Source: Cloacibacillus sp. An23 (lineage in GTDB: Bacteria > Synergistota > Synergistia > Synergistales > Synergistaceae). From it: a stretch of 64,000 nt of DNA. Below are positions 3,272-8,565 of this stretch, in pieces. The translations under genes and the position numbers were made by a program. The stretch lies in NCBI RefSeq assembly GCF_002159945.1, contig NZ_NFJQ01000002.1:248001-312000 (forward strand). The letters run 5' to 3'. A model generated the notes under the pieces. It was not told the DNA's origin and ran no database searches. It was given only the letters and a program-made list of their open reading frames with translations. Each line of letters starts with the position of its first letter. Positions within the stretch are counted from its first letter, which is position 1.

Positions 3272-3300
3272 ATTATATACATCTATTTCTTGGATATCAA
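3272..3300 (-). promoter_or_regulatory. Promoter of the GHKL ATPase operon
   Basis: On the minus strand, TTGATA (3300-3295) and TATAAT (3277-3272) are separated by exactly 17 bp, a near-consensus vegetative promoter 56 bp upstream of the GHKL start codon. It lies in the divergent interval shared with the XRE regulator, so that regulator is the obvious candidate to control it. Confidence 0.7.
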
Positions 3301-3351
3301 TGATTCTCTATAAAACTTTTATTTTTTATCATCTATATGTTGTTTTAGTAT

Positions 3352-3405
3352 AACCACTCAGCCGATACCATCATATATATGAGGTGATTGTATCTATGAG
3401 TGGTT
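3352..3405 (+). promoter_or_regulatory. 54-nt dyad covering the RBS and start of the XRE gene
   Basis: AACCACTCA (3352-3360) pairs with TGAGTGGTT (3397-3405), GATAC (3364-3368) with GTATC (3390-3394), and ATCA (3370-3373) with TGAT (3385-3388): 18 Watson-Crick pairs with two small internal loops and an 11-nt apical loop. The Shine-Dalgarno GAGG sits at the end of the apical loop and runs into the stem, and the TG of the start codon is in the basal stem. It can act as a DNA operator for an autoregulating repressor, as an RNA hairpin that hides the start, or both. Confidence 0.65.
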
Positions 3406-3797
3406 TTGACTACAGGAAGATAGGGGAGAATATCAAGCGGCTTCGAGCCGGAAAAGGACTGACACAGGCTGTATTTGCCGAGCAGCTTGATATTTCTATA
3501 GGCTATCTGTCTGAAATAGAGACAGGCAGACAAATGCCCTCTTCCAAGAAATTGTTTAAGATGATGGAACTATTAGAATGTACTCCTAACGAGATGATTC
3601 TTGGAGACGACCAGCCTAAAGTATATATTAGAGATAAAGACGAAAACTCAATAGACAATCTGGAGGACACTATGAAGTCAGTCATCGAAATGATGAAAAC
3701 AATGTCCCCAGACGAGAAATTTAAAATCTTCACGTATGCACGTGACCTGCATTTTGCAACGGAATATCTGAAATTAAAAAATAGACAAAGAGGCTAA
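3396..3797 (+). CDS. XRE-family (Cro/CI-type HTH) transcriptional regulator
   Basis: 133 aa from ATG 3396, chosen because GAGGTGA (3381-3387) sits 8 nt upstream; an in-frame GTG at 3384 overlaps that site. Residues about 5-62 form a canonical five-helix HTH: IGENIKRLRAGKGLTQAVFA, then the recognition helix region ISIGYLSEIETGRQMPS. A charged linker and a helical C-terminus follow, probably for dimerisation. No protease or ligand domain is seen, so it is not a LexA/CI-type self-cleaving repressor. It is divergent from the GHKL operon and convergent with the integrase. The dyad over its own start suggests autoregulation. It probably sets expression of the accessory operon; direct targets are inferred from position only. 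Confidence 0.88.
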   Translation: MSGFDYRKIGENIKRLRAGKGLTQAVFAEQLDISIGYLSEIETGRQMPSSKKLFKMMELLECTPNEMILGDDQPKVYIRDKDENSIDNLEDTMKSVIEMMKTMSPDEKFKIFTYARDLHFATEYLKLKNRQRG

Positions 3798-3816: not shown

Positions 3817-4386
3817 TTATAAGTTCAAGTTGAGATAGACGTTATCTAAATCATCTCTGGTAATTCCGATATAAGACAACGTTATAGACGGGCTGGAATG
3901 ATTCAGCAGCTTTTGAATAATAGTAATATCCATGCCTTTTTTATAGGCATGGTAACCGAAAGTCTTTCTCATAGTGTGAGTTCCGATAGAATCCTTTTCA
4001 AGTCCTGCATGAGCCGCAGCTTCATTTAATATTCTCCATGCCTGAATACGAGAAATGGCCTTTTTCCCCTTACGGGACTGGAAAAGGTAATCAGAACCGG
4101 TATCATCATTCAATTCGCCAAGATATTCTTTGATAGCTTTAGCAGCCGTATCACTGATAGGGAAGTCCTTAGTCTTCCCCGTCTTCTGTTCAATAAGATG
4201 AATCCTATCTTTTAATTTGCCTTTATCAGCAACGTCATCAATTTTGAGGTTGAGCAAATCTGACACTCTAAGGCCGGAGTTGATGCCCAACACGAACAAA
4301 CAATAGTCACGAAGATTTTTGCCTTTGAGATACTTCTTCATTTTTTCGAGTTTTTTCATGTCCCTGATAGGCTCAACTAATTCCAT
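3817..4386 (-). CDS. Minimal tyrosine recombinase/integrase
   Basis: 189 aa; ATG at 4386 with GGAGG upstream. All catalytic residues of a tyrosine recombinase are visible: R40 (NSGLRVSDLL), K71 (KTGKTKDFPI), H137 and R140 (THTMRKTFGYHAY), H163 (LLNHSS) and nucleophile Y172 (LSYIGI). The protein is only the catalytic domain plus a short N-terminal helix; the usual arm-binding and most of the core-binding domain are absent. Similar short integrases are known in Firmicutes phages and elements. It should catalyse integration or excision of the surrounding AT-rich element, probably with the AlpA/Xis-like protein at 8323-8565. It converges on the XRE gene with a 19-bp gap. Confidence 0.92.
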   Translation of the reverse strand: MELVEPIRDMKKLEKMKKYLKGKNLRDYCLFVLGINSGLRVSDLLNLKIDDVADKGKLKDRIHLIEQKTGKTKDFPISDTAAKAIKEYLGELNDDTGSDYLFQSRKGKKAISRIQAWRILNEAAAHAGLEKDSIGTHTMRKTFGYHAYKKGMDITIIQKLLNHSSPSITLSYIGITRDDLDNVYLNLNL

Positions 4387-4419
4387 TCAGCAACCTCCAT
4401 GTATTTAACAAACAATGAT

Positions 4420-4444
4420 ATTATAGCATATTATGTTACATAAT
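4420..4444 (-). promoter_or_regulatory. Integrase promoter with overlapping palindrome
   Basis: On the minus strand an extended -10 element (TG-C-TATAAT; hexamer 4425-4420) lies 34 bp upstream of the integrase start. Immediately upstream is the palindrome ATTATG-TTA-CATAAT (4430-4444), which would lie between -35 and -10. A repressor binding there would block integrase transcription. The -35 match is poor, so this is a moderate call. Confidence 0.5.
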
Positions 4445-4524
4445 AGAAGGGCGAATTTTTTATAGGAAATAAGAAAAAGGCCATAGGCCTAGGCTATAAC
4501 TAGATTTATGGCTATTTTGTATAT

Positions 4525-4547
4525 GTAACACAATAAGATTGTGTTAC
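4525..4547. repeat. Perfect 10-bp inverted repeat
   Basis: GTAACACAAT (4525-4534) and ATTGTGTTAC (4538-4547) are a perfect inverted repeat around a 3-bp centre. The GTTAC core recurs in the smaller palindrome at 4430-4444. It may be a repressor or recombinase binding site; the 3-bp spacer is shorter than the 6-8 bp overlap expected between recombinase core arms, so an operator is the better guess. Confidence 0.6.
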
Positions 4548-5006
4548 TTTGAAAAATTTTCATGAAAAATATTTTTTTAGAAAATTAAGATGATACGAAA
4601 GAGGGGCAATTGGGATAAATTGAACTATATTATACATTATTTTCATTTTATAAACTTTATGCTATTATTGATGTGTGTTCGAGGAACGCAAAGCATGTGT
4701 TTTTCAAGCATAAATTGATATTGAAAGCGGTGAATGTTTTTGTATGGTTTTTATAGGCGATTGTATTGGTAACTAGTCATTACCGTATTAGTAATAATAC
4801 AGTACGTACTATGTGATTATAGATTACATTGTAATATTAGCTAGTATGAATAAAATCAGTGATATTCTAAAAAAATAGTTAATTTTATAATGCGGTTTTT
4901 TTGCTAAAGTATATTAAAGTTATTTAAGGTATTTATATATATAAAAAGCGAATATGCTTTATATATATAAAAGTGTGGAATAATAGTCGATTGTTCCGCG
5001 CGGCGA
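4548..5006. other. AT-rich non-coding stretch, candidate replication origin
   Basis: No convincing gene lies between the integrase and the replication gene. The stretch is very AT-rich and holds several symmetric elements: GGTAA-N7-TTACC (4768-4784), GTATTA-GTAA-TAATAC (4785-4800), and two 15-bp direct copies of TTTATATATATAAAA (4932-4946 and 4958-4972) 26 bp apart, just upstream of the presumed initiator gene. Iteron-like repeats and AT-rich unwinding DNA next to an initiator gene are typical of plasmid or element origins. The assignment is by position and composition. Confidence 0.4.
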
Positions 5007-6389
5007 ATGGAAAGGATGAATAAAAACATGAAAGTAATGTACAATCCTCAATCTATCTTTCAAAAATTACCTCTTGAAGCACAAATCTTTCATTTTGATG
5101 GGAATGATGATTATTTAAAAGTGCAGATAGCTTTAGAAAAAGAAGAAAATAGAAAAGGGTGGTTAAATGCAATTGAAAGAACAAAACAAGATGTGGAAAA
5201 CTTTATTTCTGTGCTTAATAAATCTAATAATATCATGAATAGTAACTTACTACAATATATATATAATCAAGAATTTATGCGATTAGCACAATTTCCGTCT
5301 ATCGATACTCTTTTATTGTGTTTTAATTGCTCACAAGAGAAATTTAATGCAAATTATATAAAATTAGTCATAGAGAGAGAATATGAACTATCGCTTAATA
5401 TTATAAGACAACAATATCCAGTATTATTTGAACAATATGAAAATATATTGTTTCCTAAAATATATGAAATCCTTCGACCTACTGAAATTAGTGGAATATC
5501 AATTGATAATACTCAATTAACGAGGGATATTTTTGGGGAAATTCAAGAGTATGAAAATCTTACTTTTCAATCTACTTTAAAAATGAGAAAGTTGATATTA
5601 AATATAGATGGAAAAATATTTTTAAAAAAGAATATTCAAAGAACAAAAGATGAATTAATGCTTGACTTATGTGTTTATAATGCAATTAATAGCCTGTATT
5701 ATAACAATAAAACACAATATGTGACAATAAAACAAATAAAGAATTTGCTATACGGAGATGATTCGCGTGTTTCAAAAAAACAGGAACAAGTTATAAAATC
5801 TAGTATTGATTTTCTGAATAATATCTCTTTAGAAATATCGTTTAATAACGTCAATAAATATATAGATGTTATTTTTAATACAAGGAAAGAAAATCTTAAA
5901 AAATTTATAAAAGATTATCTGGGAGATAATTATATATATAAAGGTCTTTTGCTAGATGTGTCTTATACACAATATCGAACAAATAATGGGAAAACTAGTA
6001 TGGCAATAAAGATTGAATCTCCTGTTGTGCCTTATGCATTTGCTCTGGCTCTAAAACAGATTATACATGTTCCATCTTGCATATTAAAGAAGGTCAATGA
6101 AGATTATGAAAGAATTGATGAATTAATTATGTTAAGTTCAATATATTTGTGCTCATTTACCAAGGCAAAGAAAATTGGTTACAGTGCTGTGAACAAAAAA
6201 CGTATATTGCGTTTGGATACATTGTTTGAGAAGCTAAATTTGACAGATGTCAGTAATCAGAATATCAGGAATGTAAGGAGTAAATTATATAAACATATAG
6301 GGTATGTTTTTGACAAATTGAAAGAGTATAAAATTATCAAGTCGTTTACCTATGAAAAACAACATAGAAAAATTTATTTTGAATCATAA
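5007..6389 (+). CDS. Probable replication initiator-like protein
   Basis: 460 aa from ATG 5007; ATG 5016 or ATG 5028 (10 nt after AAAGGA) may be the true start. I do not recognise a named family. The protein is Lys/Asn/Ile-rich in keeping with the AT-rich DNA. The C-terminal part (about residues 380-460) is helical and basic with a pattern resembling winged-helix DNA-binding domains of plasmid and phage initiators. It ends 16 bp before a primase-helicase gene, and is preceded by repeat-rich AT DNA. A role in origin recognition or helicase loading is inferred from this context alone. No HUH or relaxase catalytic motif was seen. Confidence 0.55.
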   Translation: MERMNKNMKVMYNPQSIFQKLPLEAQIFHFDGNDDYLKVQIALEKEENRKGWLNAIERTKQDVENFISVLNKSNNIMNSNLLQYIYNQEFMRLAQFPSIDTLLLCFNCSQEKFNANYIKLVIEREYELSLNIIRQQYPVLFEQYENILFPKIYEILRPTEISGISIDNTQLTRDIFGEIQEYENLTFQSTLKMRKLILNIDGKIFLKKNIQRTKDELMLDLCVYNAINSLYYNNKTQYVTIKQIKNLLYGDDSRVSKKQEQVIKSSIDFLNNISLEISFNNVNKYIDVIFNTRKENLKKFIKDYLGDNYIYKGLLLDVSYTQYRTNNGKTSMAIKIESPVVPYAFALALKQIIHVPSCILKKVNEDYERIDELIMLSSIYLCSFTKAKKIGYSAVNKKRILRLDTLFEKLNLTDVSNQNIRNVRSKLYKHIGYVFDKLKEYKIIKSFTYEKQHRKIYFES

Positions 6390-8253: not shown

Positions 8254-8274
8254 AAAATTTATCTTATCCAATAG

Positions 8275-8311
8275 AGAAAGTCTGTGTGTTTTTCACACAG
8301 ACTTTCTTTTG
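8275..8311 (+). terminator. Rho-independent terminator of the replication genes
   Basis: A 14-bp perfect stem (8275-8288 with 8294-8307) around a T5 loop, followed by TTTT. It starts 21 bp after the primase-helicase stop codon. Being symmetric with an A-rich left flank, it may also stop the convergent xis transcript. Confidence 0.9.
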
Positions 8312-8322
8312 AGTAGTGCTAC

Positions 8323-8565
8323 TTAGAAAACAAGAACTTCAACTTCGCTTCCAGTATAATCTTTATACCAAGCATTCAGTGCAACTCTTGTCCACCGATA
8401 AGGCTCTGTTCCGCCAAGTTTCTCTCTTGAGAATTCACTATAATTAACGGGCTGCGGGAACTTGCCTTGACGAACCCATCGTTTTATAGTCTGTGGCGAC
8501 ATGCCAAGCGCTTCGGACACATACTTAATGTCACGAAAGAGCGGTTCTATTTTGTAGTCGCTCAT
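8323..8565 (-). CDS. AlpA/Xis-like HTH protein (excisionase candidate)
   Basis: 80 aa. Residues about 12-60 form a MerR/AlpA-type winged helix: IKYVSEALGMSPQTIKRWVR, then the basic QGKFPQPV turn and a PYRWTR element typical of AlpA regulators and excisionases. Such proteins direct tyrosine recombinases towards excision or activate integrase genes. The first in-frame ATG has no good ribosome-binding site; instead it lies inside a short upstream ORF with a strong one, so translation is probably coupled. It lies near the right edge of the AT-rich element, the integrase being about 4 kb away. Confidence 0.8.
   Translation of the reverse strand: MSDYKIEPLFRDIKYVSEALGMSPQTIKRWVRQGKFPQPVNYSEFSREKLGGTEPYRWTRVALNAWYKDYTGSEVEVLVF

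What the first reader, a model, noticed from the sequence alone, without database searches (positions are those of the whole stretch)
3352..3405. Start codon and RBS of the XRE regulator buried in an 18-bp imperfect hairpin
Three nested inverted repeats, AACCACTCA/TGAGTGGTT, GATAC/GTATC and ATCA/TGAT, close on an 11-nt loop holding the Shine-Dalgarno, with the start codon in the stem. This can give both DNA-level autoregulation and RNA-level translation control (for example thermosensing) of the element's switch gene.
Basis: partly seen in the sequence, partly recalled or inferred. Interest (0 to 1): 0.6.

Follow-up and report, generated by a model that had tools for sequence, protein, structure and literature searches.

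The report
Hairpin covering a regulator gene's start
A real and unusually strong hairpin covers the start codon of a DNA-binding regulator gene in a bacterial mobile element; it most likely keeps production of that regulator low by hiding the start site in the messenger RNA, which is a known kind of control and not a temperature sensor.

Summary
At 3352-3405 an 18-bp, three-step hairpin carries the XRE gene's ATG (3396) in its outer stem; half of the Shine-Dalgarno sequence (GAGG) is in the 11-nt loop. It is the most extreme of 394 gene starts examined in this genome. Thermosensing is contradicted: the predicted fold is intact from 20 to 65 C. DNA autoregulation through the dyad has no positive evidence: the arms occur nowhere else in the element, and the closest relative (79% identical XRE) lacks them. 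RNA-level control is the better reading. Homologues in the same phylum hide their ribosome-binding sites more than other XRE genes do, with unrelated sequences (z-scores p=0.001, pairing p=0.0001, window excluded; lineage-collapsed p=0.006). But the 79% relative has no strong hairpin, and the transcription start is unknown. Candidate promoters put it at about 3339, 3361 or 3378; only starts from about 3364 on mostly free the AUG. Most likely: an RBS-occluding hairpin that sets low translation of the regulator. Ordinary in kind; modest interest.

The parts
3352..3405 (+). 18-bp imperfect hairpin (9+5+4 bp, 11-nt loop) over the ribosome-binding site and start codon of the XRE gene
3352..3360 (+). 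5' outer arm AACCACTCA; overlaps the end of a candidate -10 (TATAAC 3349-3354)
3397..3405 (+). 3' outer arm TGAGTGGTT, holding UG of the AUG and codons 2-4
3381..3386 (+). Shine-Dalgarno GAGGTG; GAGG in the loop, TG in the stem
3396..3797 (+). XRE-type HTH regulator, 133 aa (HTH_3)
3326..3354 (+). candidate promoter TTATCA-17-TATAAC (9/12); would start RNA at about 3360-3361, inside the 5' arm
   Evidence: consensus match only
3304..3332 (+). candidate promoter TTCTCT-17-TATCAT; would start RNA at about 3339, so the whole hairpin is transcribed
   Evidence: consensus match only, not conserved in L014
3340..3345 (+). TTGTTT, a candidate -35 found at -50 to -56 in four of five core lineages; would start RNA inside the dyad
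   Evidence: 14 of 300 shuffle sets do as well
3272..3300 (-). divergent promoter TTGATA-17-TATAAT for the ATPase gene; conserved in L014
3274..3294 (+). candidate XRE operator TATATACATCTATTTCTTGGA, 18/21 shared with the 43% homologue L009
   Evidence: 6 of 500 shuffles do as well

Best explanation
The hairpin acts in RNA. In transcripts that start upstream of about 3358, the 5' leader folds back on the initiation region: the AUG is held in a 9-bp stem and half of the Shine-Dalgarno sequence is paired, so ribosomes initiate poorly and the XRE regulator is made at a low, set level. Shown here: the fold (as a model), its rarity, the predicted occlusion, and an excess of occluded start sites in homologous XRE genes. 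Inferred: that the RNA contains the 5' arm, that translation is really lowered, and that this matters for the element. Whether another factor (the XRE protein, an antisense RNA, a coupled ribosome) opens it is unknown.
For: Hairpin z -4.5 to -5.3 at the start, rank 1 of 394 gene starts. AUG unpaired probability is 0.34 with the hairpin and 0.17-0.33 in shorter RNAs starting at 3356-3361; it rises to about 0.75 for starts at 3364, 3377 and 3380, though not at 3370 (0.19). Homologues hide their start regions with different sequences: L012 has a 12-bp arm pair including the ATG (z -4.8 to -5.4); L009 a 17-bp stem over the SD with seven G-U pairs, -20.4 kcal/mol sense against -3.3 antisense, so a structure of the RNA and not a DNA dyad; L089/L114 an anti-SD arm kept through U-A/U-G/C-G changes. 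Group test without the window: z lower than in 42 other XRE genes, p=0.001; -16..+3 more paired, p=0.0001; collapsed to lineages p=0.006.
Against: The closest relative, L014 (XRE 79% identical, same neighbouring recombinase), has no strong hairpin (z about -0.7); L010, L011 and L013 have none either. The transcription start is unknown, and two of three candidate promoters start inside the dyad. Half of the SD lies in an open loop. The family test rests on few lineages and on start codons chosen by rule. Strong hairpins at host gene starts such as rmuC show that chance or other causes also give such starts.
Confidence: 0.47

Rival explanations
1. Fold-back protection against read-through. The gene's own promoter starts inside the dyad, so its own mRNA lacks the 5' arm and is translated; only transcripts entering from upstream carry the full hairpin and are silenced, as described for some insertion-sequence transposase genes.
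For: Candidate promoters TTATCA-17-TATAAC (start about 3361) and TTGTTT at -56 (start about 3376-3380) lie so that the 5' arm is promoter DNA. In L012 and L009 the 5' arm also coincides with the spacer/-10 region. The AUG becomes free (about 0.75) for starts at 3364, 3377 and 3380. TTGTT recurs at -50 to -56 in four of five lineages.
Against: The upstream gene is divergent, so read-through into the XRE gene is not expected in the present context. RNA starting at 3356-3361 or 3370 still hides the AUG (0.17-0.33). The TTGTT recurrence is matched by 14 of 300 shuffle sets. The window has no good -10 at the right spacing for it.
Confidence: 0.2
2. The dyad is a DNA operator bound by the XRE protein, giving transcriptional autoregulation; the RNA hairpin is a by-product.
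For: The arms are perfect Watson-Crick repeats (MFE sense -21.8, antisense -20.2), and the 5' arm overlaps a candidate -10 to +1 region. XRE proteins commonly bind dyads at their own promoter (established knowledge). Short dyads lie next to the SD in L010, L012 and L014.
Against: The arm sequence occurs nowhere else in the element, not at the divergent promoter either. L014, with an almost identical HTH, lacks both arms. Half-sites 45 bp apart are too far for one dimer. Another candidate operator (3274-3294) is shared with L014 and L009.
Confidence: 0.17
3. No function: a chance inverted repeat in AT-rich DNA.
For: Not conserved in the closest relative.
Against: Rank 1 of 394 starts; 2 of 300 shuffles of the region. 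Homologues show an excess of hidden start sites even without the window.
Confidence: 0.15
4. RNA thermometer that opens on warming.
For: The start region is inside a stem, as in known thermometers.
Against: The modelled outer stem stays paired from 20 to 65 C (unpaired 0.01 to 0.10) and the AUG unpaired probability moves only from 0.33 to 0.40. There is no Rfam match.
Confidence: 0.01

Closest known systems
mRNA leaders that hide the ribosome-binding site of mobile-element genes, e.g. ISPpu9 tnp of Pseudomonas putida (PMC8450116)
   Same: A mobile-element gene whose leader is predicted to pair with its own ribosome-binding site; in ISPpu9 weakening the structure raised translation.
   Different: Here the gene is a regulator, not a transposase; the hairpin is short and includes the start codon; no antisense RNA is known and nothing has been tested.
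Fold-back control of read-through transcripts of insertion-sequence transposases (IS10/IS50; own knowledge, not verified in the papers read)
   Same: Inverted repeat with one arm upstream of, and one arm over, the initiation region; possible start of the gene's own RNA inside the repeat.
   Different: The start site is not mapped; the upstream gene is divergent; the gene is not a transposase.
RNA thermometers (ROSE, fourU; e.g. PMC10586365, a fourU element in prophage SPbeta)
   Same: Translation start hidden in a stem-loop.
   Different: Much more stable here; not predicted to open at physiological temperatures; no Rfam thermometer match.
DicA / RstR-type XRE repressors
   Same: HTH_3 repressors of similar size; best NCBIfam matches.
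   Different: Scores (40 and 36 bits) are far below the curated cut-offs (101 and 80).

Membership tests
RBS-occluding cis hairpin (translation control) | Stable stem that pairs SD and/or start codon with upstream sequence | tested here: met
   MFE -21.6 kcal/mol; AUG in the outer stem, half the SD paired; predicted, not probed
RBS-occluding cis hairpin (translation control) | 5' arm is part of the transcript | tested here: inconclusive
   Candidate promoters give starts at about 3339, 3361 and 3378
RBS-occluding cis hairpin (translation control) | Structure kept in relatives by compensatory change | tested here: inconclusive
   Lost in L014; unrelated hairpins in L012 and L009; one-sided changes keep the stem in L089/L114
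RBS-occluding cis hairpin (translation control) | Breaking the stem raises translation | not testable with these tools
   Needs reporter fusions
RNA thermometer | Stem opens within the physiological temperature range | tested here: not met
   Closed from 20 to 65 C in the model
RNA thermometer | Match to a known thermometer family | tested here: not met
   No Rfam match at 3352-3405 at gathering thresholds
XRE operator (DNA autoregulation) | Same motif at the regulated promoters or in relatives with the same HTH | tested here: not met
   Arms occur only here and not in L014
XRE operator (DNA autoregulation) | Protein binds the site | not testable with these tools
   Needs gel shift or footprint
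IS-type fold-back control | Gene's own transcript starts inside the repeat | tested here: inconclusive
   Consensus scans only
DicA / RstR repressor family | NCBIfam curated cut-off | tested here: not met
   40.3 of 101 bits and 35.5 of 80 bits

The most novel reading that the evidence does not exclude
A family of XRE regulators in this phylum shows repeated, independent evolution of start-site-hiding hairpins, so that low translation of the regulator is the selected trait while the hairpin sequence turns over freely.
Probability: 0.25. Interest if true: 0.5.

Novelty: new member of a known kind. Interest (0 to 1): 0.3.

Why it matters
If true, the level of the regulator in these elements is set by RNA structure at its start codon, and the same solution arose several times in related regulators with different sequences. 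That would be a small, testable example of selection on translation-start accessibility rather than on sequence. It is not a new kind of control.

Tried and rejected
Thermosensing: rejected by the temperature series. Rfam: no family at the site. Dyad as operator: arms absent elsewhere and in L014. Looking for conserved copies of the site: none elsewhere in the own genome; the viral contig L016 is identical over 6399 bases, so it tells nothing about variation. Close XRE relatives in viral contigs, phages, plasmids and 188 genomes of the phylum: only L014 above 43% identity, so covariation on the hairpin itself could not be tested. The recombinase was tried as a bait for more XRE pairs: 40 of 183 genomes carry it, but none of the fetched flanks holds this XRE. 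Operator motif built from three divergent-promoter sites did not explain the dyad. TTGTTW as the true -35: only suggestive.

Full report
What is there. The Shine-Dalgarno GAGGTG (3381-3386) lies partly in the loop and partly in the stem; the ATG (3396-3398) has its A in an internal loop and its TG in the outer stem. The gene encodes a 133-aa HTH_3 protein. The start codon fits the relative L014, where the ATG lies at the matching place.

More than chance. As RNA the 54 nt fold at -21.6 kcal/mol, z -4.8, but these 54 nt were chosen by eye. Allowing for that, 2 of 300 dinucleotide shuffles of the 264-nt region contain any 54-nt window as stable. In the surrounding 17.7-kb AT-rich element the site is the sixth most stable place. 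Among 394 gene starts from 512 kb of the same genome, scored over -45..+10, it has the lowest z. The second is rmuC (named from its sequence, not by a search), a host gene with a perfect 10-bp repeat around its own start, so strong hairpins at starts do occur elsewhere.

Surroundings. The window belongs to a genome of 2.9 Mb whose phylum holds only 188 sampled species (I think Synergistota, from memory). The XRE gene lies near the right end of an AT-rich element that appears to begin with a 417-aa integrase-like gene at C2:238822 and to end near window 8.6 kb. To its left is a divergent GHKL-ATPase gene with a good promoter on the minus strand, TTGATA-17-TATAAT. To its right, convergent, is a 189-aa tyrosine recombinase. 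The same XRE-recombinase pair (79% and 87% identical) is in L014, and the divergent promoter is conserved there too.

The stem in relatives. L014 has neither arm and no strong fold (z about -0.7). More distant homologues differ: L012 (34-36% identical) has a 12-bp perfect arm pair including the ATG (z -4.8 to -5.4). L009 (42-43%) has a 17-bp stem over the SD with seven G-U pairs, -20.4 kcal/mol on the sense strand but -3.3 on the antisense strand. Such a stem exists only as RNA. L010, L011 and L013 have no such stem. A wider set of 15 full-length homologues was compared with 42 other XRE genes of the phylum. Without the window, the homologues have lower z (p = 0.001) and a more paired -16..+3 region (p = 0.0001); averaged over ten lineages, p = 0.006. 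In the orthologues L089 and L114 an anti-SD arm is kept although bases in it changed (U-A to U-G, U-G to C-G). These are modest numbers from few lineages.

RNA or DNA. Points against a DNA operator: the arm sequence is found nowhere else in the element, and L014, whose HTH is nearly identical, lacks it. A 21-bp stretch at the divergent promoter, 3274-3294, is shared 18/21 with L009 (6 of 500 shuffles do as well) and is recognisable in L014; it is a better operator candidate. Nothing here shows binding.

Where transcription starts. Consensus scans give three options: TTCTCT-17-TATCAT (start about 3339; whole hairpin transcribed; not conserved in L014), TTATCA-17-TATAAC (start about 3361), and a TTGTTT that recurs at -50 to -56 in four of five core lineages (start about 3376-3380), the last matched by 14 of 300 shuffle sets. 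In models, the AUG is mostly paired for starts up to 3361 and mostly free (about 0.75) for starts at 3364, 3377 and 3380, with 3370 an exception. The choice between plain occlusion and a fold-back device that silences only read-through RNA therefore rests on a start that I cannot map.

Temperature. From 20 to 65 C the outer stem stays paired and AUG accessibility hardly moves. A thermometer role is not supported.

Verdict. A real, strong hairpin; most likely an RNA structure that lowers translation of the XRE regulator (0.47), with fold-back protection (0.2), DNA operator (0.17) and chance (0.15) as rivals. Hiding of ribosome-binding sites in leaders is well known, for example in ISPpu9 (PMC8450116). 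The recurrence of different hairpins in one regulator family is the part worth a second look.

Noticed in passing
window 4387-4560, upstream of the 189-aa recombinase (3817-4386, minus strand); L014, L081, L025, L026: Repeated GTAACA/TGTTAC sites: the palindrome ATTATGTTACATAAT at 4430 next to the likely recombinase promoter, and GTAACACAAT-AAG-ATTGTGTTAC at 4525-4547, with a GCCATAAA..TATGGC hairpin between. Similar layouts precede the close copies in other genomes. They may be the recombinase's own sites or a structured leader.
   Followed up: partly
window 3817-4386: The 189-aa tyrosine recombinase holds little more than the catalytic domain (resembling FimB-type invertases and XerD) and is found in 40 of 183 genomes of the order, without this XRE gene in the flanks fetched.
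   Followed up: partly
L014 6751-9057: The nearest relative's 15-kb contig, filed under a Bacteroidales MAG, carries a 768-aa single-subunit (T7/N4-like) RNA polymerase close to the XRE-recombinase pair.
   Followed up: partly
G000:C1:114288-115724 (minus strand): A gene that reads as rmuC starts inside a perfect repeat TATGGGCATC..GATGCCCATA with the SD in the loop and TATAAT just upstream, the same fold-back layout in a host gene.
   Followed up: partly
L074, L075, L077, L078: Homologous XRE genes stand divergent to operons with secreted proteins, an SPFH-like protein, or a kinase/VWA/PP2C-like set (read by eye), so the family may control envelope or stress modules rather than lysogeny.
   Followed up: no
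window 5007-6389: A 460-aa protein before the primase-helicase has no match in Pfam, NCBIfam, PHROGs or PADLOC; by position perhaps a replication initiator.
   Followed up: no
window 8254-8330: The most stable hairpin of the element (-26.9 kcal/mol) lies between the convergent primase-helicase and AlpA-like genes; probably a two-way terminator.
   Followed up: no
L016 / IMGVR_UViG_2788500300_000002: The 127-kb 'viral' contig matches G000:C2:129233-256253 by length and position (identity checked over 6399 bases only) and seems to merge phage-like regions with the separate AT-rich element.
   Followed up: partly
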